Positions 44,236 through 62,182 of a stretch of DNA of 64,000 bases are shown in pieces. Every line of letters begins with the position of its first letter. Position 1 is the first letter of the stretch. Below the pieces are notes generated by a model. That model worked only from the letters and a program-made list of their open reading frames with translations. It was not told the DNA's origin and did not search any database. Position numbers and translations under genes: made by a program. Origin of the DNA: Trichocoleus sp. (GTDB lineage: Bacteria; Cyanobacteriota; Cyanobacteriia; Elainellales; Elainellaceae); assembly GCA_036702865.1 (NCBI GenBank), contig DATNQD010000064.1, forward strand, positions 248,001 to 312,000, in the 5' to 3' direction.

Positions 44236-44871
44236 TTACGATTCTGGGAACGATGTGGAGTAGTGAATAATTGCCAGAAAGCGAATCGGTAGCTCAATCA
44301 ATTTTTCAGGCCCGTGAGGAATATCACCACGAAAGGTGAGTGAATCACCCGGTTCTAGTAAATAAGTTGACTGCCCATGCCGATACTCAAGTTGACCTTC
44401 CAGCATATAGATAAACTCGGTGCCCGGATGCTCAAACGTCGGAAAGACTTCTGATGCATCATCCATGGTGATGAGAAATGGCTCAAACCGCTTTGTGGGA
44501 CCCTGATCATACGCCAGCAGGTGATAGGTATGCCCTCGTTTTGTACCCCGCCGCACAACTTCCATCCCTTGACCGTTTTTGACAATCTGAGCACTGCCAC
44601 CCGGTACATCATAATTGCGGAAAAGCGCCGAAAGCGAGATTCCTAAGGCACTTGCAAGTTTTGCTAACGTCTCTAGACTGGTTGCCGTTTGAGCATTTTC
44701 AATTTTGGACAACATGCCACGGGAAATCCCAGTTTGGTCAGAGATTTCGGCAATGGTCAGTCCTAATTTCTGGCGCATCTCTCGAATCGTGCTGCCAATG
44801 TAGCGTTCTAGCGGATCAACAGCCCGCTGCTCGGGCAAAGGCTCAACGGGGTTGGCTGTGGCGTCTGTCAT
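44236..44871 (-). CDS. XRE-type regulator with C-terminal cupin domain, divergent from the methylamine cluster
   Basis: A 211-residue regulator. Residues about 25-88 form a helix-turn-helix (IREMRQKLGLTIAEISDQTG, then ISRGMLSKIENAQTATS), and residues about 125-205 form a cupin barrel (PTFEHPGTEFIYMLEGQLEY, LEPGDSLTFRGDIPHGPE). The cupin keeps His and Glu residues that can bind metal or a small ligand. Such XRE-cupin proteins often sit beside and control amine and amino-acid catabolic genes. It is divergent from, and 199 bases away from, the first N-methylglutamate dehydrogenase gene, so it is the prime candidate regulator of that cluster. Confidence 0.88.
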   Translation of the reverse strand: MTDATANPVEPLPEQRAVDPLERYIGSTIREMRQKLGLTIAEISDQTGISRGMLSKIENAQTATSLETLAKLASALGISLSALFRNYDVPGGSAQIVKNGQGMEVVRRGTKRGHTYHLLAYDQGPTKRFEPFLITMDDASEVFPTFEHPGTEFIYMLEGQLEYRHGQSTYLLEPGDSLTFRGDIPHGPEKLIELPIRFLAIIHYSTSFPES

Positions 44872-44975
44872 GCGCTTACCTCATGGTCTGTCAAGAGATA
44901 GCAGGGAATAGGGCATGACAATAACCGCTATTGCTTCTCTCAACAAAATCAATACTTTCGTTGTTTTGAATCATA

Positions 44976-45017
44976 GCAGGAAACGTTGTTGACAGGCAGG
45001 AATAAAAGCTGCATGAT
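44976..45017 (+). promoter_or_regulatory. Candidate sigma70-type promoter and 20-bp-spaced direct repeats before mgdA
   Basis: TTGACA (44989-44994) is a perfect -35 hexamer; CATGAT (45012-45017), 17 bases later, matches four of six -10 positions. GCAGGAAACG (44976-44985) and GCAGGAATAA (44996-45005) flank the -35 as direct repeats exactly 20 bases apart, two helical turns. A third relative, GCAGGGAATA, lies at 44901-44910. They are good candidates for binding by the divergent XRE-cupin regulator. A short hairpin (CTGGC/GCCAG, 45045-45058) lies 12 bases before the mgdA ATG. All of this is prediction by eye. Confidence 0.4.
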
Positions 45018-45070
45018 ATTCATCTAAGTTTCCCCACAAGAATCCTGGCATAAGCCAGTAAAACCGATCG

Positions 45071-46312
45071 ATGCCTTTTAATCTGCTGAAATTTGCACTC
45101 GCGAAACAGCACCCGGAACCCGCAATGTTCCGCCAGCCCGATCGCCTGAAACCAAGCTATGATGCGGTGATCATTGGGGGCGGTGGTCATGGGTTAGCAG
45201 CCGCTTATTATCTGGCGCGAGATTACGGCATGACAAACGTTGCTGTTCTCGAAAAAGGCTATCTGGGCGGCGGCAATACGGGACGAAACACCACTATTAT
45301 TCGATCGAACTATCTCACTCCAGAAGGCGTGAAGTTTTACGATGAATCCGTGCGACTGTGGCAAGATTTATCGCAAGATTTTGACCTCAATTTGTTTTAT
45401 TCCACGCGGGGGCATTTCACGCTTGCTCACACCGATGCTTCCATGCGAACAATGCGCTGGCGAGCGGAAGTCAACAAACATTTTGGGATTAAGAGCGAAT
45501 GCGTTGACCCCCCTGAAATCCAAAAAGCCTGCCCTCATATGGATCTTTCCTGCGGCGGTAAAGCTCCCGTGATGGGGGCGCTCTATCACGCTCCAGGTAG
45601 CATTGCTCGCCATGATGCGGTGGCATGGGGTTATGGTCGTGGCGCAGATCAACGAGGCGTAGAGATTCATCAGCAAACGGAAGTGCTCGGCATTCAGGTC
45701 GAGTCGGGCAGAGTCACTGGAGTTGAGACTTGCAAAGGCAATATTTCTACACCACGAGTGCTTTGTGCGGTCGCTGGCTTTACGCCTCGCCTGCTGCAAA
45801 TGGTTGGATTACAATCACCGCTTTACATTCATCCCCTACAGGCAATGGTGAGCGAACCGATGAAGCCCTGGCTTGACCCAATCATTGTCTCAGGCAGCCT
45901 GCACGTGTATGTGAGCCAAACCGCACGCGGTGAATTGGTGATGGGCGCATCGCTTGATCCCTACGAACTCCACTCCACCCGATCGACGCTTGCGTTTGTG
46001 GAAGAGCTGGCTGCCCAAATGCTCGAACTGTTTCCGTTTCTTTCTCACGTTAAAATTGTGCGCCAATGGGCAGGGATGGCAGATATGACGCCTGATTTCG
46101 CGCCAATTATGGGGAAAACGGCGATCGATGGCTTTTATCTGGATGCAGGCTGGGGCACCTGGGGCTTTAAGGCAACCCCTGTTTGTGGCAAAACGATGGC
46201 ATATACCGTAGCGAACGATCGCAATCACGAATTAATCGAGGAATTTTCGCTCGATCGATTCCAAAACTATGCGCTATTGGGCGAAAAAGGTGCTGCTTCA
46301 GTCGGGCATTAG
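45071..46312 (+). CDS. mgdA: N-methylglutamate dehydrogenase subunit A (sarcosine oxidase beta-like)
   Basis: A 413-residue FAD-dependent amine oxidoreductase of the SoxB type. The dinucleotide-binding motif IIGGGGHGLAAAYYLA is at 34-49, and GNTGRNTTIIRSNYL follows. ARHDAVAWGY carries His181, at the place where heterotetrameric sarcosine oxidase links FMN covalently. The C-terminus has WAGMADMTPDFAPIMG and DAGWGTWGFKATP. In the N-methylglutamate pathway this subunit oxidises N-methylglutamate back to glutamate. Four genes in B-D-A-G order followed by gmaS and mgsABC identify it as mgdA rather than a sarcosine oxidase gene. The start is ATG 45071; the first 18 residues are poorly conserved-looking. 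Confidence 0.88.
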   Translation: MPFNLLKFALAKQHPEPAMFRQPDRLKPSYDAVIIGGGGHGLAAAYYLARDYGMTNVAVLEKGYLGGGNTGRNTTIIRSNYLTPEGVKFYDESVRLWQDLSQDFDLNLFYSTRGHFTLAHTDASMRTMRWRAEVNKHFGIKSECVDPPEIQKACPHMDLSCGGKAPVMGALYHAPGSIARHDAVAWGYGRGADQRGVEIHQQTEVLGIQVESGRVTGVETCKGNISTPRVLCAVAGFTPRLLQMVGLQSPLYIHPLQAMVSEPMKPWLDPIIVSGSLHVYVSQTARGELVMGASLDPYELHSTRSTLAFVEELAAQMLELFPFLSHVKIVRQWAGMADMTPDFAPIMGKTAIDGFYLDAGWGTWGFKATPVCGKTMAYTVANDRNHELIEEFSLDRFQNYALLGEKGAASVGH

Positions 46313-46322
46313 AAGCAGAAAT

Positions 46323-46357
46323 CCAAAATCCAAAATCCAAAATCTAAAATCTAAAAT
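46323..46357. repeat. Heptanucleotide tandem repeat CCAAAAT/CTAAAAT, five copies
   Basis: Three CCAAAAT and two CTAAAAT units run head to tail in the 60-base gap between mgdA and mgdB. Heptamer arrays of this kind (short tandemly repeated repetitive sequences) are a recognised feature of filamentous cyanobacterial genomes. Their presence inside this operon indicates that it has been resident in a cyanobacterial chromosome. The array sits just ahead of the mgdB ribosome-binding site (agggga). Confidence 0.85.
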
Positions 46358-46372
46358 TTCAGGGGACAAAGA

Positions 46373-46645
46373 ATGAAAATAATGACCTGCCCAATCAATG
46401 GGGCAAGACCGATAACAGAGTTTGTGTACGGTGGAGAAGTTCGTTCAATGCCAGATCCACAAACCGTCGATGATGCAACCTGGGCAGCTTATTTGTATCA
46501 CCGCAATAGCGTTCCTGGAATTAAACAAGAATGGTGGTGTCATACAGCCAGCAATACCTGGTTTATTGCCGAGCGAAATACGCTGACAGATGAGATATTA
46601 CAGACCTACTTGTATGGTGATTTACAAGGTGAGGCAATTGCATGA
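46373..46645 (+). CDS. mgdB: N-methylglutamate dehydrogenase subunit B (sarcosine oxidase delta-like)
   Basis: A 90-residue SoxD-type small subunit. The family pattern is CPxCG...EFxYGGE...W.xYLYxR...EWWxHxxGC..WF...R.T. Here Cys6, EFVYGGE and WAAYLYHRNS are kept, but the second N-terminal Cys is Asn9 (CPINGARP). The later Cys region reads WWCHTASNTWF with Cys56-His57 and no downstream Cys. The zinc site of sarcosine oxidase delta is therefore altered. RBS agggga precedes the ATG at 46373, and the stop overlaps the mgdC start by four bases, so translation is probably coupled. Confidence 0.85.
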   Translation: MKIMTCPINGARPITEFVYGGEVRSMPDPQTVDDATWAAYLYHRNSVPGIKQEWWCHTASNTWFIAERNTLTDEILQTYLYGDLQGEAIA

Positions 46646-49600
46646 GTTACCGACTGCCACCCATTCCGGGCGAATGGATCGATCGCAACCAACCGATTGA
46701 ATTCTTCTTTGAGGGCGATCGGGTTTGGGGCTACGCTGGAGATACGATTACCAGTGCACTCTGGGCTGCTGAAAAACGAGTATTGGGACGCAGTTTTAAA
46801 TACCATCGTCCACGCGGAATCTTGAGTTTTGCCAACCATGATGTGAATGTGCTGATGCAGCAGGGGCAAACGCTCAATGTCCGGGCTGATGTCACTAAGC
46901 TGGAAGCTGGAATGTCGCTTGCGGCAGTGAATACGAATGGCGGCGTCATGGGCGATCGTAACAGCATTTTGAACTTGTTCTCCTCGTTTCTTCCAGTTGG
47001 GTTTTACTACAAAGCCTTTCACAATCGACGACTGTTTCCCTTCTGGGAGCGGATTATTCGCAACATCAGTGGGTTAGGCAAGCTGGATACTGCAACCCCC
47101 CAGATTCGCACTGCCAAACAATATGATTTCTGTGATGTTTTAGTCATTGGCGCAGGCGTCGCCGGACTGTCAGCTGCAATTGCTGCCGCAGAAGCTGGAG
47201 CAGATGTCGTGATTGTGGATGAAAACGCCAGAGCAGGAGGTTCAGGTAGCTATCAACTCGGTGGTGAATGGTCAAGAGCAGAGAAAACCAACGGCTTTGT
47301 GAATGCAGTTAAGATGCACGATCGCATTCAGCTTTACCCTGAGACGATCGCTGCCGGATATTATGCAGATCACTGGATTCCATTAGTGGATGCAAACCGT
47401 TTGACCAAAATGCGGACAAAAGCAGTGATAATGGCGAACGGAGCTTATGAACAGCCTGCGGTATTTCGCAACAACGATCTGCCGGGAATCATGCTGGCAT
47501 CAGCAGCCCAACGCTTGATCTATCGCTACGCCGTTAAGCCCATGAATCAGGCGGTCATGCTGATTGCGAATTGGGATGGCTATCAGGCTGCTTTAGATTT
47601 GATCCAGCAGGGAATTGAGGTGAAGGCGATCGTCGATCTACGTCCTGCTGCAAGGATTTCTTCTATCTCGCCAGCCTTGCAGCGCCAGGGCATTCCGATT
47701 TATACCAGTCATTGTATTTATGAAGCGAGAGGAAATCCGGCAAGGGATGGCGTTGTCAGCGCGGTCATTTGTCCGATCGACGCTTATGGTAATCCGCAAA
47801 CTGAGTCCAAGCAGACGATCGCCTGTGATGGCATTGTGATGAGTGTTGGTTGGGCACCCGCTGCGAACTTGCTGTATCAGGCTGGAGCAAAGATGCGCTT
47901 TGATGATCACTTGCAGCAGTTTGTTCCAGAGCAATTGCCAGAAGGTGTATTTGCCTGTGGACGGGTGAATGGGGTGTATGAGTTTGAGCAGAAAGTGCGA
48001 GATGGTCAGCGGGCTGGATTGGAGGCTGTTGCATTCTTAGATAAATCAAGAGACAGATCAAGAGACGGATCAAGAGACAGATTAAGAGATAGATCAGGAA
48101 AGACAGATTCAGCCCCAAAAATTACCCCTTCCCCAACAGTCGATCGCACCTTATCAGAATCTCCTTCACACCCCTGGGCGATCGTGCCTCATCCAGACGG
48201 CAAAAACTTTGTTGATTTTGATGAGGATCTTCAGTTTAAGGATTTTCCGAATGCGGTTCAGGAAGGATTTGACAACATTGAATTGCTAAAACGATTTACG
48301 ACAGTGGGAATGGGTTCAAGTCAGGGTAAACATTCTAATATGAATGCGCTGAGGATTCTAGCGCGAATCACAGGTAAATCACCAGGTGAAGTTGGGACAA
48401 CCACTGCACGACCTTTCTTTCATCCCGTGCCGTTATCCCATTTAGCAGGACGAGGATTCACACCCGAGCGACAAACGCCTCTCCATTCTCGTCATACTGC
48501 GCTGAATGCAAAGTGGATGCTGGCGGGAACGTGGCGACGACCAGAATATTACCAGCAGCCCGGAAAAAGCCGCGAAGACTGCATTCGATCGGAAGTTGAG
48601 GCAGTTCGTCAGCGGGTCGGCATGATTGATGTGGGCACGTTAGGCAAAATCGAAATTCGGGGGAGTGATGCGGCTGCATTTTTAGAACGAATTTACACCG
48701 GACGCTACAGCAGTTTGAAAGTCGGGATGTCGCGCTATGCCTTGATGCTGGATGAAGCAGGCGTCGTGAGAGATGATGGTGTGGTTGCCCGCTTAGGAAC
48801 TGAGCATTTCTATTTCACAACAACAACTTCTGGTGCAGCGACAATCTACCGGGAGCTTTCTCGCTGGAATACGCTATGGCAGATGGATTGTGGGCTGGTG
48901 AACCTGACCGGAGCCCGATCGGCAATCAACCTGGCTGGACCCAATGCCCGCGCGCTCTTAGCGAAACTAACCGATTGTGATCTTTCCGGTGTTGCTTTTC
49001 CTTATCTCGCAGTACGGGAGACACAAGTTGCCGGAATTTCTGCCTTGTTAACGCGAGTTGGGTTTGTGGGTGAGTGGGGCTACGAAATTCACGTTGCGGC
49101 TGAATCGGCTCCGCTGCTCTGGGATGCAATCTGGGAAGCGGGTCAAGCATGGAATATTGCTCCGTTTGGTGTGGAAGCACAGCGACTTTTGCGGCTGGAG
49201 AAAGGGCATCTCCTTGTTGGGCAGGATACAGATGGATTAACAACACCGGGAGAAGCGGGTTTAGCCTGGGCAGTCAAATTAGATAAGCCATTTTTTATTG
49301 GTCAACGCAGCCTCCAAGCGATCGCCAAACGACCTGTCAAACAAACCCAAGTCGGTTTCATGCTTGCTCCCAATTTTCAGCAAAGACCGCCGCAAGAGTG
49401 CCACTTAATCATTGACGATGGTGAAATTGTTGGTCGGGTGACCAGTATTGCTTTTAGCCCCACCTTGCAGCGCTACATCGGGCTTGCTTTTGTTAAACCA
49501 GAACTGGCAGCAGTCGGTACGCCCCTCTCCATTCGCCTCTCCGATCGCTCGATCGTCATTGCTACGGTTAGCCCAACCCCTTTCTACGACCCAGACAACC

Positions 49601-49647
49601 AGCGCCAGCAGGAAACTGTAATCCAGCGTCAGGAGGTTACAGCATGA
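46642..49647 (+). CDS. mgdC: N-methylglutamate dehydrogenase subunit C (sarcosine oxidase alpha-like)
   Basis: A 1001-residue SoxA-type large subunit. In order: an N-terminal ferredoxin-like domain (GRSFKYHRPRGILSFA at about 50-65), an NAD/FAD-binding domain (VLVIGAGVAGLSAAIAAAEAGA near 166), and a middle region with KNFVDFDED and ELLKRFTTVGMGSSQGKHSN typical of the N-methylglutamate enzyme. A C-terminal aminomethyltransferase (GCV_T-like) domain of about 380 residues then binds tetrahydrofolate (VGMIDVGTLGKIEIRG, GFVGEWGYEIH). The last domain could capture the methyl carbon as methylene-tetrahydrofolate. An Arg/Asp/Ser-rich insert at about 469-486 is encoded by a 12-base repeat. It overlaps both neighbours by four bases. 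Confidence 0.88.
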   Translation: MSYRLPPIPGEWIDRNQPIEFFFEGDRVWGYAGDTITSALWAAEKRVLGRSFKYHRPRGILSFANHDVNVLMQQGQTLNVRADVTKLEAGMSLAAVNTNGGVMGDRNSILNLFSSFLPVGFYYKAFHNRRLFPFWERIIRNISGLGKLDTATPQIRTAKQYDFCDVLVIGAGVAGLSAAIAAAEAGADVVIVDENARAGGSGSYQLGGEWSRAEKTNGFVNAVKMHDRIQLYPETIAAGYYADHWIPLVDANRLTKMRTKAVIMANGAYEQPAVFRNNDLPGIMLASAAQRLIYRYAVKPMNQAVMLIANWDGYQAALDLIQQGIEVKAIVDLRPAARISSISPALQRQGIPIYTSHCIYEARGNPARDGVVSAVICPIDAYGNPQTESKQTIACDGIVMSVGWAPAANLLYQAGAKMRFDDHLQQFVPEQLPEGVFACGRVNGVYEFEQKVRDGQRAGLEAVAFLDKSRDRSRDGSRDRLRDRSGKTDSAPKITPSPTVDRTLSESPSHPWAIVPHPDGKNFVDFDEDLQFKDFPNAVQEGFDNIELLKRFTTVGMGSSQGKHSNMNALRILARITGKSPGEVGTTTARPFFHPVPLSHLAGRGFTPERQTPLHSRHTALNAKWMLAGTWRRPEYYQQPGKSREDCIRSEVEAVRQRVGMIDVGTLGKIEIRGSDAAAFLERIYTGRYSSLKVGMSRYALMLDEAGVVRDDGVVARLGTEHFYFTTTTSGAATIYRELSRWNTLWQMDCGLVNLTGARSAINLAGPNARALLAKLTDCDLSGVAFPYLAVRETQVAGISALLTRVGFVGEWGYEIHVAAESAPLLWDAIWEAGQAWNIAPFGVEAQRLLRLEKGHLLVGQDTDGLTTPGEAGLAWAVKLDKPFFIGQRSLQAIAKRPVKQTQVGFMLAPNFQQRPPQECHLIIDDGEIVGRVTSIAFSPTLQRYIGLAFVKPELAAVGTPLSIRLSDRSIVIATVSPTPFYDPDNQRQQETVIQRQEVTA
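48045..48098 (+). repeat. 12-bp tandem repeat inside mgdC encoding a Ser-Arg-Asp-rich linker
   Basis: Units atcaagagac(a/g)g occur at 48045, 48057, 48069 and 48081 (the last with two changes), with a partial fifth. Because 12 is a multiple of three the array stays in frame and encodes S-R-D-R/G tetrapeptides. It lies at the junction between the flavin/NAD-binding half and the folate-binding half of the protein, a place where extra length is probably tolerated. Confidence 0.85.
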
Positions 49648-50360
49648 ATAGCCCTGCGCGTCTCAGCCCAATTTACGATTCGCTTCAGTCGTTAAGCGAG
49701 TCATTAAGCGGTACATGGTGCAGCATCAATGGAATGCCAACGTTCGCCAGTTCACCGAATGATCTGCTTTATGCCTCTCATCTGGGAATTGCCGATCTCT
49801 CGTTTCTCACTCGTTTTGGTGTCAAAGGAGCAAATGCTGCCGAATGGTTAACCCAGCAGGGACTTCCGATTCCGGCTCGCCCAAATACCTGGAATTGGTT
49901 GCCTGATGGAGGCATCATTGCCCGATTAGGGCTGACAGAATTTTTGCTTGAGGATGGTGTCAATTGCGCCATTGCGCCTCGGTTAGCAACGATCGCTCAG
50001 TCGCCTCCAGCAAGAGTCTATCCAGTGTTGCGGCAAGATCTCGCTTTGGGTCTGGTTGGCGATCGACTCCATGATCTGCTGCGTCAGACCTGTAGCTTTA
50101 ACTTTTCGGCATGTTTACTGGGCGATCGTCCGGTGATTCTCACGACGATGATTGGGGTTGCAGTAACAGTGATTCCGGGTGAACGCAATGGACAGCCCTT
50201 TTACCGCATCTGGTGTGACGGGACATTTGGCAACTATTTTTGGCAAACGCTGATCGAGATTGCAAATTCGCTAGAGGGAGGGGCGATCGGCGCAGAACTG
50301 CTGTGGGATGAGGGATTCACTGATTTTCAGAATGGGGAGATGGGGGAGCAAATGGAGTAA
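49644..50360 (+). CDS. mgdD: N-methylglutamate dehydrogenase subunit D (sarcosine oxidase gamma-like)
   Basis: A 238-residue SoxG-type subunit, distantly related to the folate-binding aminomethyltransferase fold. Typical features are the early [20 protein letters not shown]-like stretch (residues about 50-69) and the middle LTEFLLEDG. The C-terminal [28 protein letters not shown] theme follows (about residues 174-201). It overlaps the end of mgdC by four bases. Gamma is the most variable subunit of these complexes, so assignment relies partly on its position as fourth gene after B, D and A. Confidence 0.82.
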
Positions 50361-50452
50361 GTTTTTTCCTGCTCAAGCAGCCCTTAAGGAAGAGAAAGTT
50401 CAAGCGATCGCAAGCCAAAAGCATCACGTTAACCAACGCTGGAGTAAACCAA

Positions 50453-51781
50453 ATGAACTTAGCAGAAGCAAAAACCTTTCTCGAAGCGCATCAAGTTAAA
50501 TTCGTGCTGGCGCAATTTGTCGATATTCATGGCGTTGCAAAAACCAAAGCTGTCCCCGCTTCTCACTTTGAAGACATCCTCAATCCAGGTGCGGGGTTTG
50601 CTGGATTTGCAGTCTGGGGATTGGGCATGGATCCACATAGCCCGGACTATATGGCAGTTGGTGATCTCTCAACCTTATCGCTAGTCCCCTGGATGCCCGG
50701 ATTTGCGCGAATTGTCTGCGTTGGGCATGTGAAAGGCGAACCCTATGCGTATGATGCTCGCTTTGTTCTGATGCAGCAGATTGAGCGACTCAAACAGCGA
50801 GGCTGGATGCTGAATACTGGCGTCGAACCTGAATTTGTCTTACTTCGTAAAGATGAACAGGGACAAATTTATCCGTTTGATGCAACTGACACGTTAGACA
50901 AACCCTGCTATGACTTTCGCGGATTATCTCGTAGCGCCGTATTTCTCGAAAAACTGGTGACCAATCTGCAAACCGTTGGATTTGATGTTTATCAGATTGA
51001 CCATGAGGATGCCAATGGACAGTTTGAAATCAATTACACCTACACCGATTGCCTCACCACTGCCGATCGCTATATCTTCTTCAAAATGGCAGCCTCCGAA
51101 ATTGCCAAGGAATTAGGGCTGATTTGCTCTTTCATGCCAAAACCCTTTGCCAACCGCACTGGAACCGGGATGCACATTCATTTATCAATTTCTGACGGCA
51201 GTTCCAACCTTTTTGCTGATGAGGCTGATCCCCGTCAGTTGGGGCTTTCCCCGCTGGCATATCACTTCCTAGGTGGCTTGCTTGCCCATGCAGATGCTTT
51301 GACCGCCATTTGTGCCCCAACGATTAATTCCTATAAACGATTAGTAGTTGGACGATCGCTGAGTGGCGCAACTTGGGCACCTGCTTACATCACCTACGGC
51401 GACAATAACCGATCGAGCATGGTGCGGGTTCCGGGCGGACGATTAGAACTGCGGCTGGCAGATGGTTCCTGTAATCCCTATTTAGCAACGGCTGCGGCAA
51501 TTGCTGCGGGGTTAGACGGCATTGAAAAAGCCATTGATCCTGGAGAACCTTACAACTTAAACCTGTACAACCTTTCTGAAGCCGATCTGAAAGACAAGGG
51601 CATCCGTACCTTACCTCAGAGTTTGCACGAAGCGATCGAGGCATTAGAGTCTGATGAAGTCATTAAAGGCGCATTAGGAATTCTGGCAGATGAATTTATT
51701 AATCTAAAGCGAATGGAATGGGTGGAATATATGCGCCACGTTTCGGAATGGGAAGTGGAACGCTATTTGGAGTTTTTCTAA
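50453..51781 (+). CDS. gmaS: Gamma-glutamylmethylamide synthetase (GlnT/type III glutamine synthetase family)
   Basis: A 442-residue glutamine-synthetase-fold enzyme. In the N-methylglutamate pathway GmaS ligates methylamine to glutamate with ATP, giving gamma-glutamylmethylamide. Visible features are [13 protein letters not shown] at the start, EPEFVLL (metal Glu), [30 protein letters not shown] (catalytic beta-grasp region, with the His), [20 protein letters not shown] (cited here as the VPGGRLELR core), and the short C-terminus of the GlnT group. It starts with ATG 92 bases after mgdD and one base before mgsA. An ordinary glutamine synthetase cannot be excluded by motif alone; the flanking mgd and mgs genes decide the call. 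Confidence 0.88.
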
Positions 51782-51782
51782 G

Positions 51783-52679
51783 ATGTGTGGAATTATCGGA
51801 CTGTTGATCAAAAAACCAGAATGGCGTGAATCTTTAGGTGAATTGCTTGTGCCAATGTTGATTGGAATGAGCGATCGAGGACCTGACTCTGCCGGACTCG
51901 CTATCTTCACGGCTACCCTGCCAGATCCCCATCGCAAATACAGCCTCTACTGGAGCGGTAAAGACTGCAATTGGGCAAGTCTGGCACAATCATTCCAGAC
52001 CGCTTTTGAGACAACGCCTGATCTACAAATCAATCAAAATCAAGCAGTATTGACCTCAGAGCAGCCACCCAATCGAATTAAGCAATGGCTCAAAACGAAC
52101 CAGCCGCACCTGCATTTGCTTTCAACAGGTCGCACGATCGATCTCTACAAAGACACGGGTAAACCAGAAACGGTTGCAGAACGCTATCACTTCAAAACGC
52201 TGAAAGGCTCTCATGCGATCGGGCATACCCGCATGGCAACAGAATCGGCAGTGACGCCTGCCCATGCTCACCCTTTTACAGCAGGAGAAGATTTTTGTTT
52301 GGTGCATAATGGTTCACTGTCCAATCCCTATTCCATTCGTCGTCAACTGGAACCCCTGGGAATTCACTTTGAAACCGACAACGACACAGAAGCTGCCTGC
52401 CGCTTTTTAGAATGGCGAATGCGAGAAGGGGACGACCTGGAAACTGCCGTTCAGCATGGATTTGCGGCGTTAGACGGCTTTTACACTTTCCTCATGGGAA
52501 CTGCCGATAAACTGGCACTGGTGCGAGATGCCTTTGCCTGTAAGCCAGCAGTGGTGGCAGAAACCGCAGATTATGTGGCAATCGCTTCAGAATTTCGATC
52601 GCTGGCTCACCTGCCAGATGTCAAAAATGCTCACCTCTATGAGCCAGAGCCAGAGGAGTTATATGTATGGACAGTGTGA
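51783..52679 (+). CDS. mgsA: N-methylglutamate synthase subunit A (class II glutamine amidotransferase-like)
   Basis: A 298-residue Ntn-type amidotransferase corresponding to the N-terminal domain of glutamate synthase. The nucleophile is Cys2 (MCGIIG). Also present are SDRGPDSAG, the substrate-site HTRMATES (GHTRMAT), the NGSLSN oxyanion motif and DTEAACRFLE. In MgsABC it would hydrolyse gamma-glutamylmethylamide and pass methylamine to 2-oxoglutarate to form N-methylglutamate. Start ATG is one base after gmaS. It overlaps mgsB by 13 bases. Confidence 0.88.
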   Translation: MCGIIGLLIKKPEWRESLGELLVPMLIGMSDRGPDSAGLAIFTATLPDPHRKYSLYWSGKDCNWASLAQSFQTAFETTPDLQINQNQAVLTSEQPPNRIKQWLKTNQPHLHLLSTGRTIDLYKDTGKPETVAERYHFKTLKGSHAIGHTRMATESAVTPAHAHPFTAGEDFCLVHNGSLSNPYSIRRQLEPLGIHFETDNDTEAACRFLEWRMREGDDLETAVQHGFAALDGFYTFLMGTADKLALVRDAFACKPAVVAETADYVAIASEFRSLAHLPDVKNAHLYEPEPEELYVWTV

Positions 52680-53368
52680 TTCAGAAGACGATCGTTTTTG
52701 ATCTGGCTCAAACCTCCCTGCGCGAAGTCAACTACGCTCTGCACCAACTGGACGCAGACAGCAGACAAGCAATCAAAATTCTCAATCCTGATGGCGCACA
52801 TAATGTAGCAGTTGGGCTGAATGCACCCGTGGCGATCGGAATTGCAGGTCATGCAGGCTACTATGCGGCAAGCATGAATCAGCAGGCAACAGTGACGATC
52901 GATGGCAATGTCGGCACAGGAGTTGCTGAAAATATGATGTCGGGTCGGGTGCATGTGAAGGGCTTTGCATCGGTTTCTGCGGGTGCTTCCGCGCATGGAG
53001 GGCTGCTGATTATCGATGGTAATGCCAGTCTGCGCTGCGGGATTTCGCTCAAAGGGGCAGATATTGTTGTCGGGGGCAGCGTTGGTAGCTTTGCTGCATT
53101 CATGGCACAGGCAGGACGGCTGGTGATCTGTGGCGATGCAGGTGAGGCATTAGGAGATTCATTGTATGAAGCCGTGATTTATGTACGAGGCAACATCCGA
53201 TCGCTCGGTGCAGATGCCCAACAAGAACCGATGTCTGACACTGATCATCAAACGGTTGCTGAGTTGTTGGAGCAAGCAGGTTTCTCATACAGCCCTCAAG
53301 AATTTAAACGAGTCGCTTCCGCCAAGCAGCTCTACCACTGGAATGCGGATGCTAATCAGGAGTATTAA
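52667..53368 (+). CDS. mgsB: N-methylglutamate synthase subunit B (GltB C-terminal beta-helix-like)
   Basis: A 233-residue protein matching the GXGXG beta-helix domain of glutamate synthase large subunit as a separate polypeptide. The repeating pattern of beta-strand turns is clear: IDGNVGTGVAENM, VHVKGFASVSAGASA, IIDGNASLRCG, IVVGGSVGSFAAFMA, VICGDAGEALGDS and VYVRGN-like (IYVRGN) turns. It ends three bases before mgsC. In split systems this subunit scaffolds the synthase. The regular turns make the fold assignment secure. Confidence 0.88.
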   Translation: MDSVIQKTIVFDLAQTSLREVNYALHQLDADSRQAIKILNPDGAHNVAVGLNAPVAIGIAGHAGYYAASMNQQATVTIDGNVGTGVAENMMSGRVHVKGFASVSAGASAHGGLLIIDGNASLRCGISLKGADIVVGGSVGSFAAFMAQAGRLVICGDAGEALGDSLYEAVIYVRGNIRSLGADAQQEPMSDTDHQTVAELLEQAGFSYSPQEFKRVASAKQLYHWNADANQEY

Positions 53369-53370
53369 CA

Positions 53371-54735
53371 ATGACGCCATCTCAATCCAATCAATCCATT
53401 TCCCAAGAAGAATCCTGGGGGTACGATCGCCGCACACTGAACTACATTCAAAATGCAGCGGCACATGGTCTGTATGAAATTCGCGGTTTAGGTGCAAAAC
53501 GACGGCTGCCTCATTTTGATGATCTGGTATTTTTGGGTGCTTCCATGTCTCGCTATCCGCTGGAAGGCTATCGGGAAAAATGCACGACTCAAACCATTCT
53601 CGGCACTCGCTATGCAAAGCAACCGATCGAGCTGGCAATCCCCATTACGATCGCTGGCATGAGTTTTGGGTCGCTCTCTGCCAATGTCAAAGAATCACTG
53701 GGACGGGCAGCAACCGCAGTCGGTACTTCCACCACAACAGGTGATGGGGGCATGACGCCAGAAGAGCGGCTCTCTTCTAAAACGCTGATCTACCAGTGTC
53801 TACCCTCCCGCTACGGATTCAACCCCGACGATGTCCGAAAAGCAGATGCGATCGAGATTGTCATTGGTCAGGGGGCAAAGCCCGGTGGTGGCGGAATGCT
53901 GCTTGGACAAAAAATTAATCCGCGAGTTGCTCAAATGCGAACCCTGCCCGAAGGTGTGGATCAACGCTCTGCCTGTCGCCATCCTGACTGGACTGGTCCC
54001 GATGATCTGGCAATCAAAATCCAGCAGCTACGAGAATTAACGGACTGGGAAAAGCCAATTTACGTCAAAGTGGGAGCGACCCGCACCTTCAACGATGTCA
54101 AACTAGCGGTTCATGCGGGTGCTGATGTTGTTGTTGTGGATGGAATGCAGGGAGGAACTGCCGCAACCCAAACGGTATTTATTGAACATGTGGGTATCCC
54201 TACGCTAGCAGCCGTCCGACAAGCAGTGGATGCGCTGGAAGAGATGAACATGAAGGGGCAAGTCCAGCTCATTGTGTCCGGTGGCATTCGCACGGGAGCC
54301 GATGTTGCGAAAGCGATCGCCATGGGGGCTGATGCCGTTTCGATCGGTCAGGGCATTCTCGTTGCTTTGGGCTGCAACAGTGAAACCTATGTGCAAAAGG
54401 GAGAGCATTTCTCAGCCGTTGAAGATTATGCGGCGATCGGCACAGCCCCCGGATATTGCCACCATTGCCATACAGGAAAATGTCCTGTAGGAGTAACAAC
54501 CCAGGATGAGCATCTGGAAAAGCGCCTCGAACCAGAAGTCGGTGCCCGACGGGTCAAAAACTATCTGCAAACGCTGAATATGGAACTGACAACGATCGCC
54601 CGTGCTTGCGGAAAGCAAAATGTCCATCACCTGGAACGAGAAGATCTGGCAGCATTGACGATCGAAGCGGCTGCAATGTCGCGGTTGCCTCTCGCAGGAA
54701 CGAATTGGATTCCTGGCGTTCAGTCCAGTATTTGA
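53371..54735 (+). CDS. mgsC: N-methylglutamate synthase subunit C (FMN/Fe-S glutamate synthase-like)
   Basis: A 454-residue FMN-binding synthase domain protein, equivalent to the central TIM barrel of glutamate synthase. Seen are PITIAGMSFGSLSANVKESLG, TTTGDGGM, the substrate and flavin stretch GQGAKPGGGGML and IYVKVGATR. VVDGMQGGTAATQTVF, IVSGGIRTGADVAKAIAMGA and iron-sulfur cysteines Cys363, Cys366 and Cys371 (CHHCHTGKCPVG) follow. It would reduce the imine formed from methylamine and 2-oxoglutarate. It is the last gene of the cluster; the downstream GST gene converges on it. Confidence 0.9.
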   Translation: MTPSQSNQSISQEESWGYDRRTLNYIQNAAAHGLYEIRGLGAKRRLPHFDDLVFLGASMSRYPLEGYREKCTTQTILGTRYAKQPIELAIPITIAGMSFGSLSANVKESLGRAATAVGTSTTTGDGGMTPEERLSSKTLIYQCLPSRYGFNPDDVRKADAIEIVIGQGAKPGGGGMLLGQKINPRVAQMRTLPEGVDQRSACRHPDWTGPDDLAIKIQQLRELTDWEKPIYVKVGATRTFNDVKLAVHAGADVVVVDGMQGGTAATQTVFIEHVGIPTLAAVRQAVDALEEMNMKGQVQLIVSGGIRTGADVAKAIAMGADAVSIGQGILVALGCNSETYVQKGEHFSAVEDYAAIGTAPGYCHHCHTGKCPVGVTTQDEHLEKRLEPEVGARRVKNYLQTLNMELTTIARACGKQNVHHLEREDLAALTIEAAAMSRLPLAGTNWIPGVQSSI

Positions 54736-56339: not shown

Positions 56340-57260
56340 ATGGATAAGTTTGACAGTATGCGTGCCTTTACTCAGGTAGTGGCTTCGGGTGGCTTTGCAG
56401 CAGCAGCAAGGGAAATGGGATTGTCGCGATCGACAGTCAACAAACTCGTAATCGGCTTAGAGAACGAACTGGGTGTACAACTGCTGCACCGCAGTACGCG
56501 AGTGGTGACTCCCACTGAGATGGGGTTGGCATTTTATGAGCGTTGCTTGGAAATTTTGGCAAGTTTGGAAGAGGCAGAACGATCGATTACCCAACTTCAT
56601 GAAGAGCCGAGAGGACGGTTGCGCGTGAATGCTCCAATGTCCTTTGGCACAATCCATTTGGCTCCTGCTATAGCGGATTTTCTGGTGCAATATCCCGAAC
56701 TCCAGGTTCAACTCACCTTGAACGATCGCTTCATTGACCCGATCGAAGAAGGCTTTGATATCACAGTGCGAATTGCGAAACCCCAGGAGGCTGCAAGTTT
56801 GATTGTGCATCCGTTAACATTGGCTCCGCAGGTGCTCTGTGCTGCTCCAAGCTATCTGGCAACCCATGGAACTCCCACTCACCCCAAGGAGCTGCGCCAC
56901 CATTCTTGCTTGCACTATGGTCAACTTATGATTGAGGATCGGTGGACGTTAATGGGACCAGACGGAGAACAAACGATCGCGATCAATGGGGTGCTGTGTT
57001 CTAACAATGGGGAAGTCCTCAAAGATGCAGCCGTTCGCGGATTGGGGATTACCCTGCTGCCGACGTTTATTGTGGGGCAAGAATTGCAACAGGGAAAGCT
57101 GCAAGTTGTTTTGGCTGCTTATCGTCCACCCGAACTGGTAATTTCTGTCATTTATCCAGTCAATCGTCATCTATCAACAAAGGTGCGGCTACTGGTTGAT
57201 TTCCTGCAACAACGGTTTGGTCATGAGCAAGGCATTCTTGACAGCAAACGTTTCTTGTAA
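56340..57260 (+). CDS. LysR-type transcriptional regulator (CrgA/PecT-like subgroup)
   Basis: A 306-residue LysR regulator from ATG 56340 ([19 protein letters not shown]); a TTG 30 bases earlier is less likely. The helix-turn-helix spans about residues 1-60 ([35 protein letters not shown]), and the rest is the two-lobed effector domain ([12 protein letters not shown]). It is divergent from the pirin-GST pair and most likely their regulator. Its last 72 bases overlap the 3' end of the convergent amidase gene, an unusually long convergent overlap. Confidence 0.9.
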
Positions 57261-58622
57261 CCCATAAGCAAACTGAAGCATTGCTGCCTCACCTCGCGGT
57301 TTACCAATGAGTTGCATCCCAATGGGCAAACCAGAAGATGTCCAACCACAAGGAATAGAAACGCTGGGTAGACCTGTTAAGGAGATGGTATAGGTGATCG
57401 CTAAATAATCAATCATATTTCGCAGCGGCGTTTGATTAATCTCCAAAATTTCACCTTGAGTGTGTAAGTAAGGAGGAATACTGGCGCTTACCGTTGCAAG
57501 AATGTCATAGTCTTCAAAGAACTTCAAAAAATTGAGATAAAGGCGATCGCGCTCTGCTTCAGCTTGAAGAAGCTCTGTGGCTGAAATATTCGCTCCCCGT
57601 TCCACATTCCAGCGAACGCTTTCGGATAATAAATCACGATGCTGCTCATAATGCTGTTTTTGTTTGTGATGTAAGGTAGCAGCTCGGATCGTTTCAAAAG
57701 CAAATTGCGCCATTGAACAGTCAGGATGAGTTTCGGTGATCTGTGCACAAACAGGGGAGATTTGGGCGATCGATTGACGAAACACAGCTTCCACTTCTCG
57801 ATCGATCACAGCAATGCCCAGATTGGGACTAAAACCAACTCGAAGGGAATTGCCCGATGCCATCGAGAAATTAGGTATCTTCCAAGATTCGCTGCCGATG
57901 GAAATGGGGTCGCGCCAATCTTCTCCTGCCATCACAGACAGCATGAGTGCCGCATCTTCAACGTTACGCGCCAGAATTCCATCGGTTTCCAGAGAATCCC
58001 GCAGTAAGGGTTTGCGTCGTCGAGGAATGCGTCCGGCAGAAGGGCGGAGTCCCACAATGCCACAGAAGCTCGCCGGAGTGCGAACAGAGCCACCCATATC
58101 GGTTCCCTGCGCTAGATGCCCCATTCCCATTGCGACAGCAACGGCTGCTCCTCCACTGGAACCTCCAGAACTGCGATCGGGGTCGTAAGGGTTTGCGGTA
58201 GGCCCGTATAAAGCATTGGTGCAGTGCGCTCCCATCCCAAACTCTGGCGTGTTAGTTTTGCCGATCAAAATCCCTCCCGCTGCCCGTAGACGAGCCACAC
58301 AGAGTTCATCTTGCTGCGGTACATTGTCTTTGTAGATCAGCGAACCAAAGGTCGTTCGGACATCGGCAGTCGGCGTTAAATCCTTCACCGTGAATGGTAC
58401 GCCATGCAGCACGCCAACAGCTTCTCCCCGATCGATCGCTGCATCAGCACGGATTGCTTCTGCTTCAGCCCGTTTGCGACAGAGCGTGATCATGGCTTTG
58501 AGGCGATCGTTGTGTCGATCAATTTGATCAAAGCAGGCAGCAACAGCATCAATTGATCGAATTTGTTGGCTATGAATCGCACGGGCGAGTTCTGTGGCAG
58601 ATAGCTGATGAATTGCCGTCAT
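57189..58622 (-). CDS. Amidase-signature family amidohydrolase (first of two)
   Basis: A 477-residue amidase-signature enzyme that would hydrolyse a carboxamide, ureido or carbamoyl bond. The catalytic triad is readable: Lys80 (PFTVKD), cis-Ser155 (SSGGSSGG) and nucleophile Ser179 ([11 protein letters not shown]). It is the last gene of a minus-strand unit after the decarboxylase/racemase-like gene, whose stop overlaps its start by four bases. The second amidase upstream is clearly divergent in sequence, so the two probably act at different steps. The C-terminus overlaps the LysR gene by 72 bases. Confidence 0.9.
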
Positions 58623-59368
58623 ACTTGCGTCAACACAGGCTGCTGGGATTCAGTAAACAACCGTCCCCACCCCTTTACAACCATCGGATCAACCCCCGCT
58701 ATTTTCAGGGATTTCCAGACGGCTGCTGCAATCGTGTCATAAATCGGAATGCCCAATTCCTGTTCAAGCTCATCCACGAGCGGTGCGGCTTGTAAGTTGG
58801 TACAGAAGGTCACGATCGCTTCAGGTTGTTTTTGAGCAACTGCTCGAATCATCGAAGTAATTTGATCGGCTGTGACTTCTGAGAAGGAAAAGTTTACTGA
58901 TAGATTGAGATGCTGTTCTGCAACACAATGAAAGCCTTCTGTAGCAAAGTTAGCAATGGTGCGTTCCTGCACGTCATCCAGGTAAGGCGTGACTAAAGCA
59001 AAATTATGGATCTGACGATCGCGCAAAATTTCTGCAATTGCCAGAACTGAGGTCGTTGCTGGAATTCCGGTGGTGTTGGTAATTTCCCGGCAAAGCTGAA
59101 CATCTGCATCAAATCCTAACCAACCCGCAGAAGTTCCGTTCCAGGCAATTACGTCTACTTTTGCATCGGCTAAAAGCTGAGCGGCATTGATCAAAGGCGC
59201 ATTGTCAAACTGTTCTAACGCCTGCTGGCGCAGCGAAATTTCGGTCACGCGAAACCGTCCAAAATGGGCAGATACATTTGGTAATTGGGCAACCATTGCA
59301 CTGGTAACAGGTTCCAGGACGGTATTCGAAGAAGGGGTTAACATTCCTAAAAGGGTACGCTTCGTCAT
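58619..59368 (-). CDS. Arylmalonate decarboxylase / maleate isomerase-like protein (Asp/Glu racemase superfamily)
   Basis: A 249-residue member of the Asp/Glu racemase superfamily; the start LLGMLTPSSNTVLEPV is typical of the maleate cis-trans isomerase group. The superfamily uses two Cys residues in racemases. Here the first site is Gly78-Thr79-Ser80 and only the second, Cys189 (VTFCTNL), is present. This is the same single-Cys arrangement as arylmalonate decarboxylase (Gly74-Thr75-Ser76, Cys188). It is therefore more likely a malonate-type decarboxylase or isomerase than a racemase. It sits between two amidase genes, so its substrate probably comes from one of them. Confidence 0.75.
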   Translation of the reverse strand: MTKRTLLGMLTPSSNTVLEPVTSAMVAQLPNVSAHFGRFRVTEISLRQQALEQFDNAPLINAAQLLADAKVDVIAWNGTSAGWLGFDADVQLCREITNTTGIPATTSVLAIAEILRDRQIHNFALVTPYLDDVQERTIANFATEGFHCVAEQHLNLSVNFSFSEVTADQITSMIRAVAQKQPEAIVTFCTNLQAAPLVDELEQELGIPIYDTIAAAVWKSLKIAGVDPMVVKGWGRLFTESQQPVLTQV

Positions 59369-59400
59369 TCACAAACCTCCATGTAATTGGTTGATTGCTA

Positions 59401-60765
59401 TCATCTTGGGTTCAAAACTTGTTGATTTTGGGGAACATGAGTAAGACTTTGCAGCGACAGACATTTCATTGCCCAATCTGCGATCGCCAGTAAATTCCAG
59501 TCGCCTAACCGTTGCCCTACTAATTGAATTCCCAGCGGTAAGCCGTTCGCTGCGGTTCCAGCAGGAATGCTGATGGCAGGTAGCCCACAGAGCGTCCAGA
59601 GGGCACAAAAGATCGGAGAACCCGTATTCTCTAATCCTTGGGGAGCAGTTCCAGTCGTGACGGGTGTGAGGATGGCATCATAGTCCGCCCAGAGCTGGTC
59701 TAGGATCACGTTATAGCGGATTGCAGCTTGACGAGCCTTAGCATGGGCGATCGCAGGCATCGTTCGTCCCTGTTCAATGATTTGGCGGAGTTTATCAGAC
59801 ATTTGATCAGCATGGCGATCGTAATCTGCACCATGATGGGTTGCCATGCCAACAGCAGATAGCACACTGATATGCTCAAAGCAGGCATCAAATTCAGACG
59901 GTAAATTGACTTCTGTAATCATCGCGCCTGCCTTCATGAGCGCTGAAATACTGTGCAACAACGCTCGTTCTGCCTCCGGTTCAATTTGCGACCAGTAGGG
60001 GGATAGAACCAGCGCAAATTTGGGAGGACGTTGAGATCCTGAAGCTGGAACCAGAACCTCATGACAGTCTGGATCACGATGATCAACAATCGCTAAAACA
60101 TTCAACACTCGCGAAATATCGGCAACACTGCGAGCAAAAAATCCAACGTGATCGAGTTCTTGGCTGCCAAGCATAACGCCATAGCGTGAAATCACACCAA
60201 AACTGGGCTTAAAGCCGACGATTCCACAGTAAGCAGCAGGACGCAGAATCGACCCCACCATTTGAGTCCCGATCGCCACAGGCACCATATTATCTGCAAC
60301 CGCAGCAGCAGATCCGCTGGAACTTGCACCCGGCGTGTGTTCTAAATGATGAGGATTACGGGTCTTACCAGGACGGGCGATCGCATATTCGCTTGTCACT
60401 GTTTTCCCTAAAATAATCGCACCTGCTGAACGTAACCGCTCAACAACGGCTGCCTCATAATTAAACTGCTGATCCGCATAAATGGGAGTTCCCCACCGCG
60501 TTGGCATATCGATGGTTGCAACTGTATCTTTGATGCCGATTGGAATACCATGCAAGGGCTTTAAATGCTTCCCTCTGGCTTGCGCGACATTCAGCCTTTT
60601 AGCGATTTGAAAGGCATCATTGAGATTGAGATATTCCCAAGCCTCCACATCTGCTTGTCGTTCAGCAATCCGTTCTAAGCACGATTGCAGTAATTCAACC
60701 GCTGATAGTTTTCTTTGTTGAATAAACTTTAGAGCTTGCGTAGCTGTGAGGTGATGGCTCAGCAT
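59401..60765 (-). CDS. Amidase-signature family amidohydrolase (second of two)
   Basis: A 454-residue amidase-signature protein. Triad residues are Lys79 (IGIKD), cis-Ser148 within GASSSGSAA (where the usual form is GGSSGG) and nucleophile Ser172 (GTQMVGSILRPAAYCG). It lies 32 bases before the decarboxylase-like gene and 46 bases after the transthyretin-like gene, within the same unit. Similarity to allophanate/AtzF-, urea-amide- or aryl-acylamidases cannot be resolved by eye. The altered Ser/Gly loop may reflect a substrate different from that of the other amidase. Confidence 0.88.
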   Translation of the reverse strand: MLSHHLTATQALKFIQQRKLSAVELLQSCLERIAERQADVEAWEYLNLNDAFQIAKRLNVAQARGKHLKPLHGIPIGIKDTVATIDMPTRWGTPIYADQQFNYEAAVVERLRSAGAIILGKTVTSEYAIARPGKTRNPHHLEHTPGASSSGSAAAVADNMVPVAIGTQMVGSILRPAAYCGIVGFKPSFGVISRYGVMLGSQELDHVGFFARSVADISRVLNVLAIVDHRDPDCHEVLVPASGSQRPPKFALVLSPYWSQIEPEAERALLHSISALMKAGAMITEVNLPSEFDACFEHISVLSAVGMATHHGADYDRHADQMSDKLRQIIEQGRTMPAIAHAKARQAAIRYNVILDQLWADYDAILTPVTTGTAPQGLENTGSPIFCALWTLCGLPAISIPAGTAANGLPLGIQLVGQRLGDWNLLAIADWAMKCLSLQSLTHVPQNQQVLNPR

Positions 60766-60811
60766 AGGATATCAAGCCATATTTAGTTAACTTGAATGCT
60801 GTAACCTGACA

Positions 60812-61165
60812 TCATCCACCTCGGAACAATGAGAACCCCCACGGGGATACTTTCAACGGCAAGTGGTAATGTTGCTCCACATCGCCAATGCCAAACCGAA
60901 AAGGAACAACATCGAGAAATGGGGTATCAGGGAAGGAATAGCCAAGCTGGCGGTAGAAATCACCGATGTAGAACACTACTTCATAAACGCCACGATCGCA
61001 CCCCTTTCCTTCCACAATGGGATGATCGAGAAGCCCTTTGCCAGACAGGACTCCAGCAGCGATCGGTTGAGCAGGTTCGCTGATGCTGAAGATTTCTACC
61101 TTCATTCCTACAGCAGGTAATCCGCGCGTTACATCCACAACATGAACTGAAATTCCACCCGCCAT
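60812..61165 (-). CDS. Transthyretin-like protein of the 5-hydroxyisourate hydrolase family, catalytic residues altered
   Basis: A 117-residue protein with the HIUase/transthyretin fold: N-terminal ISVHVVDVTRGLPA with His8, GVYEVVFYIGDFYRQLG in the middle, PFLDVVPFRFGI, and HYHLPLKVSPWGFSLFRGG at the end. HIUases need an Arg in the DGR motif (Leu45 here) and end in YRGS (FRGG here, residues 114-117). The catalytic Arg and Ser are therefore missing, while the histidines remain. It probably acts on something other than hydroxyisourate. Genes for urate oxidase or OHCU decarboxylase are absent from the window. It is located between the permease and amidase genes. Confidence 0.78.
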   Translation of the reverse strand: MAGGISVHVVDVTRGLPAVGMKVEIFSISEPAQPIAAGVLSGKGLLDHPIVEGKGCDRGVYEVVFYIGDFYRQLGYSFPDTPFLDVVPFRFGIGDVEQHYHLPLKVSPWGFSLFRGG

Positions 61166-62172: not shown

Positions 62173-62182
62173 AGGTAAACTC

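What the first reader, a model, noticed from the sequence alone, without database searches (positions are those of the whole stretch)
44236..54735. A complete N-methylglutamate pathway for methylamine use in a cyanobacterial genome
Eight plus-strand genes in the order mgdA, mgdB, mgdC, mgdD, gmaS, mgsA, mgsB, mgsC encode every enzyme of the pathway: methylamine + glutamate to gamma-glutamylmethylamide (GmaS), to N-methylglutamate (MgsABC), and back to glutamate plus a one-carbon unit (MgdABCD). Established knowledge places this pathway mainly in methylotrophs and other proteobacteria. In cyanobacteria methylammonium is known mostly as a toxic ammonium analogue that glutamine synthetase converts to gamma-N-methylglutamine, a near dead end. 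Here that product would become an intermediate. The cluster has its own divergent XRE-cupin regulator. I infer use of methylamine as a nitrogen source for a phototroph; I cannot say whether this has been described.
Basis: partly seen in the sequence, partly recalled or inferred. Interest (0 to 1): 0.88.

Follow-up and report, generated by a model that had tools for sequence, protein, structure and literature searches.

The report
Methylamine-using operon in a cyanobacterium
This photosynthetic bacterium carries a complete gene set, with its own regulator, that is predicted to take the nitrogen out of methylamine, and a number of other cyanobacteria carry it too; growth on methylamine has not been tested.

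Summary
Observation confirmed: eight + strand genes (45071-54735) encode MgdABCD, GmaS and MgsABC, with a divergent XRE-cupin gene (44236-44871). GmaS has the GmaS active site and is closest to the solved Methylovorus enzyme 9QUR; MgdA, B and C score below sarcosine-oxidase cut-offs; and the cluster is at home in cyanobacteria (mgdA orthologue in 32 of 388 sampled genomes, window included), with proteobacterial clusters (Zoogloea, Paraburkholderia, Acidithiobacillus caldus) nearest. Most likely it moves methylamine nitrogen into glutamate and the carbon to tetrahydrofolate; purU joins the operon in 16 of 30 cyanobacterial loci. New here: nine genomes have clusters without gmaS; all nine carry an unlinked Rhodovulum-type GmaS, which none of 23 gmaS-bearing genomes has. 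So the pathway seems to need a true GmaS rather than glutamine synthetase; independent losses are still few. A shared sigma-70-like promoter with AGGAAA/TTTCCT half-sites and no NtcA site suggests local control. GmaS of Cyanophyceae was already in a published alignment; I found no paper on the whole pathway there. Activity, inducer and role are inferred.

The parts
44236..44871 (-). XRE-cupin regulator gene, divergent from the operon
   Evidence: HTH_3 + Cupin_2; a homologue (71% or more) divergent from the operon in the 29 other cyanobacterial loci; none found in the fetched stretch of G042 (L061)
44978..45033 (+). promoter/operator region: AGGAAAC 44978, TTGACA 44989-44994, AGGAA 44998, CATGAT 45012-45017 (17-nt spacer), AAGTTTCC 45026
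   Evidence: for the places; compared in the window and 29 cyanobacterial loci (18 of 30 rows meet all four simple criteria, 8 three, 4 two); one occurrence in own genome at up to 3 mismatches
45071..46312 (+). mgdA (N-methylglutamate dehydrogenase, SoxB-type FAD subunit)
46373..46645 (+). mgdB (SoxD-type subunit)
   Evidence: PF04267 E 1e-28
46642..49647 (+). mgdC (SoxA-type subunit with C-terminal GCV_T folate domain; no cysteine in residues 1-110)
49644..50360 (+). mgdD (SoxG/GcvT-fold subunit)
50453..51781 (+). gmaS, type 1 gamma-glutamylmethylamide synthetase
   Evidence: 714.8 bits to 9QUR; active-site residues
51783..52679 (+). mgsA (class II amidotransferase subunit)
52667..53368 (+). 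mgsB (GXGXG subunit)
   Evidence: PF01493 E 3.1e-9
53371..54735 (+). mgsC (FMN glutamate-synthase-like subunit; CHHCHTGKC from residue 363)
   Evidence: PF01645 E 4.3e-96; tree

Best explanation
A complete N-methylglutamate pathway that assimilates methylamine nitrogen in an oxygenic phototroph. GmaS joins methylamine to glutamate using ATP. MgsABC splits off the methylamine and reductively adds it to 2-oxoglutarate, giving N-methylglutamate and returning one glutamate. MgdABCD oxidises N-methylglutamate to glutamate and passes the methyl carbon to tetrahydrofolate. Net: methylamine + 2-oxoglutarate + ATP + THF gives glutamate + methylene-THF; two electrons in, two out, no free ammonium. Excess C1 probably leaves as formate through FolD and PurU. 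The XRE-cupin protein probably represses a sigma-70-like promoter through the AGGAAA/TTTCCT half-sites until methylamine or an intermediate releases it. Shown here: genes, active-site residues, family placement, conserved order and promoter sequence, GmaS substitution pattern. From established knowledge of the pathway: the reactions. Inferred: activity in this host, repression, inducer, physiological role.
For: GmaS: best solved relative 9QUR (714.8 bits; 370.7 for 7CQL; 280.4 for the best ordinary glutamine synthetase); ten RhGmaS residues checked are all kept, among them the catalytic three, with Ala50 and Trp308 where glutamine synthetases have the ammonium-binding Asp and the loop Glu. MgdA: in a tree of 90 rows it lies on a side of 59 rows, 47 mgs-linked (window counted), 1 not, 11 not classifiable. 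Order regulator, purU, mgdABCD, gmaS, mgsABC, folD in A. caldus (mgdD in the gap) and Paraburkholderia, there with the regulator gene in the same direction. purU between regulator and mgdA in 16 of 30 cyanobacterial rows; the own genome keeps a cluster-type purU elsewhere, 82.5% to that of L051. gmaS-less clusters: type-2 GmaS in 9 of 9 genomes, in 0 of 23 gmaS-bearing ones. Host holds psaA/psaB-family genes.
Against: No enzyme or growth data. No GTAN8TAC (NtcA-type, recalled) in the upstream region of the window or of 32 loci scanned. No transporter in the cluster and none shared by the flanks. purU is not specific: cluster-less G007 and G046 have one too, and G355, which has the cluster, has only a match below the cut-off with a stop inside. 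MmGMAS, the nearest solved enzyme, has a broader amine scope than RhGMAS (PMC12588301, passages), so another amine could be the main substrate. GmaS is not identical at every site discussed for RhGmaS: Trp189 is Tyr here, as in 9QUR. The GmaS substitution rests on few independent events: 4 pairs on well-supported branches (sign test p 0.125), 7 on the best tree.
Confidence: 0.85

Rival explanations
1. Detoxification or overflow: the operon removes methylammonium, and the methylglutamine that glutamine synthetase makes from it, rather than feeding nitrogen metabolism.
For: No NtcA-type site and a promoter sequence that occurs once in the genome, fitting a purely local response; a LysE-type exporter gene sits between mgsB and mgsC in two genomes of one genus (Pfam run on one of the two).
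Against: The cluster carries, or its genome carries, an ATP-using GmaS that makes that very compound; the end product is glutamate.
Confidence: 0.12
2. Photomethylotrophy: the methylene-THF is a meaningful carbon supply as well as the nitrogen.
For: MgdC keeps the folate-binding GCV_T domain; MgdA kin include Methylophaga and Novimethylophilus.
Against: purU in the operon of 16 of 30 cyanobacterial rows points to C1 leaving as formate; the host has photosystem I genes and so presumably fixes CO2.
Confidence: 0.15
3. The MgdABCD-like enzyme is a sarcosine oxidase and the cluster serves sarcosine or glycine betaine breakdown.
For: SoxBDAG homology; the Lys of the GFK motif and the His of IA-R/K-HD (recalled as the covalent FMN site) are kept.
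Against: MgdA, B and C below the curated cut-offs (I ran no known sarcosine oxidase as a control); MgdA lies apart from the annotated Neorhizobium soxB; the operon is joined to gmaS-mgsABC.
Confidence: 0.03
4. The contig is proteobacterial contamination.
For: The nearest relatives outside cyanobacteria are proteobacterial.
Against: Orthologous clusters in many cyanobacterial genomes, among them ones of 1, 4 and 3 contigs (G002, G355, G592); the 31 cyanobacterial rows part from 5 proteobacterial rows at 100/100.
Confidence: 0.01

Closest known systems
N-methylglutamate pathway of methylotrophic and other proteobacteria (gmaS, mgsABC, mgdABCD)
   Same: All eight genes, GmaS active-site residues, placement of MgdA and MgsC
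   Different: Host is an oxygenic phototroph; in nine of the cyanobacterial genomes gmaS is missing from the cluster and an unlinked GmaS of another type is present
Acidithiobacillus caldus ATCC 51756 megaplasmid mpAca1.1 cluster (L089)
   Same: Divergent XRE gene, mgdABCD, gmaS, mgsABC in the same order
   Different: purU and folD in the cluster; on a plasmid of a proteobacterium; the window's purU lies elsewhere in its genome
Methylovorus mays GMAS (PDB 9QUR)
   Same: Full-length match to the window GmaS, 714.8 bits
   Different: From a methylotroph
Rhodovulum GmaS (PDB 7CQL)
   Same: Closest solved relative of the unlinked type-2 GmaS (L182), 516.4 bits
   Different: Only 370.7 bits to the window GmaS
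Heterotetrameric sarcosine oxidase (2GAG, 1VRQ)
   Same: Four subunits, GCV_T domain, gamma-chain fold
   Different: Window subunits below the family cut-offs; linked to gmaS-mgsABC

Membership tests
N-methylglutamate pathway | A GmaS with GmaS-type active site (RhGmaS Asp177, Glu186, Arg312; Ala and Trp where GS has Asp50' and Glu304) | tested here: met
   Window D183, E192, R320, A50, W308 (residues from PMC7948447); positions assigned by me from the alignments
N-methylglutamate pathway | MgsA amidotransferase with N-terminal Cys, MgsB GXGXG, MgsC FMN glutamate-synthase domain | tested here: met
   MgsC tree with Methylophaga and Methylobacterium rows
N-methylglutamate pathway | Four-subunit Mgd related to but distinct from sarcosine oxidase | tested here: met
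N-methylglutamate pathway | Enzyme activities and N-methylglutamate formed from methylamine | not testable with these tools
   needs assays
Bona fide sarcosine oxidase (SoxBDAG) | Scores above the curated NCBIfam subunit cut-offs | tested here: not met
   484.2/529.45, 67.8/116.5, 813.4/1164; no positive control run
Ordinary glutamine synthetase (GlnA) | Ammonium-binding Asp50' and loop Glu304 | tested here: not met
   Ala and Trp in the window; the own-genome GlnA-like L185 has D at the first position and a gap at the second in that alignment
NtcA-activated nitrogen operon | GTAN8TAC upstream of the operon (recalled motif) | tested here: not met
   upstream region only; weaker NtcA sites were not modelled

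The most novel reading that the evidence does not exclude
A set of cyanobacteria are light-powered methylamine users with a dedicated regulator. They swap between two distant GmaS types (cluster-borne 9QUR-type or unlinked 7CQL-type) and in none of the 32 genomes examined run the pathway on glutamine synthetase alone; the C1 unit may be partly assimilated, which would make them partial photomethylotrophs.
Probability: 0.3. Interest if true: 0.75.

Novelty: new member of a known kind. Interest (0 to 1): 0.62.

Why it matters
If this operon works, part of the phylum can use it as nitrogen, which would bear on methylamine turnover, on methylammonium as a transport probe in such strains, and on engineering phototrophs to take methylated amines. 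The GmaS swap gives a direct test of whether glutamine synthetase can feed the pathway, with named strains on both sides: Chlorogloea sp. CCALA 695 has gmaS in the cluster; Kovacikia minuta and Vasconcelosia minhoensis do not.

Tried and rejected
NtcA control was looked for and not found. Shared flanks: among 30 cyanobacterial loci and the window, with ORFs of 85 residues or more and a strict length rule, no family outside the cluster occurs in three or more; several loci have little or no flank, so this is a weak negative. Two families occur inside some clusters (ABM monooxygenase domain in 7; another in 5). A regulon: one hit only, at up to 3 mismatches of one pattern; type-2 gmaS upstream regions showed no such site by eye in six loci. 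The NCBIfam name 'type III glutamate--ammonia ligase' (TIGR03105) was rejected as evidence for GmaS: three ligase types pass its cut-off. A type-3 ligase (signature YSDEEDTWRR) was considered as the substitute for gmaS and rejected: it is present in gmaS-bearing G005 and G041 and no such second ligase was seen in gmaS-less G017 and G050.

Weak spots of the GmaS count. Set aside: G029 and G595 (cluster cut by a contig end; G029 showed no MgsC) and G492 (no such cluster). G035 (77% complete) and G028 (82%) are among the 23, so absence there is weaker. In G598 the type-2 gene reads in two frames and the fetched stretch shows no mgsC; in G592 the search flagged one TGA in the matched stretch, though the 442-residue ORF L240:6709-8037 is open. 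G042 (L061) shows neither mgsC nor the regulator in its stretch. In the tree test the second trait was entered equal to the first, as searches gave it, so agreement of the pairs is automatic and only their number informs; 22 of the 23 gmaS-bearing genomes are in that tree (G014 is not).

Misfires: one search used a wrong family accession and only told where the window lies; one search was a script that failed on a file name and was rerun; one search used a truncated word with whole-word matching, repeated. Notebook entry 1 miscounted; entry 5 corrects it.
Full report
OBSERVATION. Library scans support the assignments: regulator HTH + cupin; MgdA, MgdB and MgdC as SoxB-, SoxD- and SoxA-type subunits, all three below the curated cut-offs for sarcosine oxidase subunits; GmaS above the cut-off of TIGR03105; MgsA, MgsB and MgsC as amidotransferase, GXGXG and FMN glutamate-synthase-like subunits. 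MgdD, the weakest assignment, has no hit on its own. A profile of 20 homologues finds the gamma chain of sarcosine oxidase (3ad7_C, E 7.4e-13), and an AlphaFold model of mean pLDDT 92.3 matches first GcvT-fold proteins and, at ranks 21 and 25, the gamma chains 1vrq_C and 2gag_C.

GmaS OR GLUTAMINE SYNTHETASE. The best solved relative is 9QUR, glutamate--methylamine ligase (714.8 bits; 7CQL 370.7; the best chain called plainly glutamine synthetase 280.4). The 9QUR paper (PMC12588301; passages seen) names it as the Methylovorus mays enzyme. The RhGmaS paper (PMC7948447; passages and section 10 seen) gives Asp177, Glu186 and Arg312 as catalytic, and Ala48 and Trp300 where glutamine synthetases have Asp50' and Glu304. 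The window has D183, E192, R320, A50 and W308, and keeps the ten positions I checked (positions assigned by me from the alignments). Not every residue discussed in the paper was checked, and Trp189 of RhGmaS is Tyr here, as in 9QUR. In a GmaS tree the own-genome GlnA-like proteins stand far away on long branches (quick method).

Mgd OR SARCOSINE OXIDASE. In a tree of 90 MgdA/SoxB rows (quick method, midpoint root) the window lies on a side of 59 rows: 47 have mgsC in the locus (window counted), 1 does not, 11 could not be classified because the stretch is short. That side holds Methylophaga and Novimethylophilus. The other side, 31 rows with the Neorhizobium soxB, is mixed: 17 rows without mgs in the locus, 8 mgs-linked, 6 not classifiable. 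So linkage to mgs is not exclusive to the window's side.

DISTRIBUTION. MgdC (best segment 66% or more) occurs in 18 of 60 genomes of the first sample, own included: 14 of 36 in the window's family and 4 of 24 others. In a class-wide sample 33 of 388 genomes have an MgdA match at E up to 1e-100; 32 are close orthologues (82% or more; two of them matched only in part), and G492 has 52%. TIGR03105 exceeds its cut-off in 24 of 386 phylum genomes, but that counts other ligase types too. Named cyanobacteria with the cluster: Kovacikia minuta (plasmid pA), Chlorogloea sp. CCALA 695 and Vasconcelosia minhoensis LEGE 07310. Own genome: psaA/psaB-family genes, completeness 100, contamination 0.94. In a tree of five joined proteins the 31 cyanobacterial rows part from 5 proteobacterial rows at 100/100; in wider trees the cyanobacterial rows are one group in MgdA (12 rows, SH-aLRT 99) and, with weaker support, in MgsC (18 rows, 71/95).

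GENE ORDER AND C1 FATE. All eight genes in order are seen in 19 cyanobacterial loci, window counted; nine genomes lack gmaS in the cluster; others are cut by contig ends; G042 lacks mgsC in its stretch. purU stands between regulator and mgdA in 16 of 30 rows. A. caldus has the divergent XRE gene, purU, the eight genes and folD. PMC7574528 (passages) states that methyl groups may be bound to THF and processed by folD and purU. The window's genome has its PurU elsewhere (G000:C36:5307-6140), 82.5% identical to that of L051, against 47-51% for the unlinked PurU of G017, G050 and G002. Its leader resembles the downstream part of the cluster promoter (by eye), which suggests it moved out of such an operon (inference). 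PurU as such is widespread: 15 of 15 genomes searched match, 14 over the cut-off, among them cluster-less G007 and G046. The reactions in the best explanation are established knowledge of the pathway.

GmaS SUBSTITUTION. Some clusters lack gmaS between mgdD and mgsA. In the nine genomes concerned the best match to the window GmaS is 43-45%: G008, G017, G037, G050, G434, G435, G447, G592, G598. All nine carry a second GmaS, type 2: 70-100% to the query L182, in G598 as two pieces of 82% and 68%. L182 is closest to 7CQL (516.4 bits; 365.9 for 9QUR), and the four rows examined (L182, L177, L086, L179) keep the ten-residue signature. None of 23 genomes with a gmaS-bearing cluster has type 2; their matches to L182 stay at 47% or less. 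Fisher one-sided p 3.6e-8 ignores kinship. On the cluster tree gmaS absence needs 7 changes; independent pairs number 7 on the best tree and 4 on well-supported branches, too few for significance on the latter (p 0.125). In the GmaS tree the type-2 genes of all nine form one group (SH-aLRT 100) with those of G063 and G492. Both of these have an MgsC, of a more distant type (67%), whereas 9 of the 15 cyanobacteria with other type-2-like GmaS were tested and none of the 9 has MgsC at E up to 1e-30 (G007, G046, G393, G184, G108, G172, G047, G318, G287). An Amt-family gene lies next to type-2 gmaS in L179, with its like in L241 and L242, and near mgsABC in G063, one ORF between; it is under the NCBIfam ammonium-transporter cut-off.

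PROMOTER. Upstream of the first operon gene the window and 29 cyanobacterial loci share TTGACA (TTGACT in L230) with AGGAAA-like half-sites and mostly a TTTCCT-like site. By four simple criteria 18 rows meet all, 8 three, 4 two. The TTGAC copy was chosen by those criteria, so the count is partly selected; the background is 0.057 TTGACA per 200 bases per strand. No GTAN8TAC in the window or in 32 loci scanned. The site occurs once in the own genome at up to 3 mismatches. Repression by the XRE-cupin protein is inference.

LITERATURE. Searches of the held open-access library (one search was faulty) listed no paper that, from listings or the passages I read, describes the full pathway in cyanobacteria. 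PMC7948447 colours GmaS proteins from Cyanophyceae in its figure 10 legend, so gmaS there was known. PMC5023228 (passages) says the pathway lets non-methylotrophic proteobacteria use methylamine as a nitrogen source; PMC5023230 (passages) proposes it in Mycobacterium; PMC10753782 (passages) found its genes in no nitrifier genome of its collection. The library itself says that most subscription papers are missing.

VERDICT. A real, complete, conserved pathway cluster in a phylum where it seems little noticed; the mechanism is known from elsewhere; the GmaS swap and the shared promoter are the new points.

Noticed in passing
L178 3736-12027; in part also L084, L087, L088, L176, L180, L181: A third GmaS-like ligase (signature YSDEEDTWRR) sits with an arginase-family hydrolase, HypA and HypB/UreG-type proteins, an ABC-transporter binding protein and a Rieske oxygenase (Pfam on L178 only; not every part in every locus). 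It resembles a guanidine-use locus (recalled); role of the ligase unknown.
   Followed up: partly
L249 8613-14440 (G063); L250 7889-10994 (G492): A second, more distant MgsABC type in cyanobacteria, without mgdABCD of the window's kind beside it; in G063 an Amt-family gene is close by.
   Followed up: partly
L054 7973-11614; L064 8129-11755: mgdC and mgdD read as one ORF of about 1210 residues.
   Followed up: no
window 8062-21040: Omega-aminotransferase AptA, carbamoylase/hydantoinase-family amidase and dihydropyrimidinase (all over their cut-offs), with polyamine-like ABC transporter genes and a regulator below theirs: probable pyrimidine or hydantoin nitrogen use.
   Followed up: partly
window 57189-63028: Two amidase genes and a polyamine-type ABC permease gene on the minus strand, none over a curated cut-off.
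   Followed up: partly
L091 / L235 (Kovacikia minuta plasmid pA): The cluster lies on a 1.2 Mb plasmid; its mgdA matches in two overlapping pieces, so it may be broken or misread.
   Followed up: no
L057 5577-6212; L067 6297-6869: A LysE-type exporter gene is inserted between mgsB and mgsC in two genomes of one genus.
   Followed up: partly
L069, L071, L072, L075, L078 upstream of the GmaS-like gene: Type-2-like GmaS genes in cluster-less cyanobacteria follow two shared genes, by look an acyltransferase/hydrolase-like and a desaturase-like protein (names recalled, not tested).
   Followed up: no
L183 6162-6330: The leader of the lone purU of the window's genome resembles the -10 and TTTCCT part of the cluster promoter but lacks TTGACA (by eye).
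   Followed up: partly
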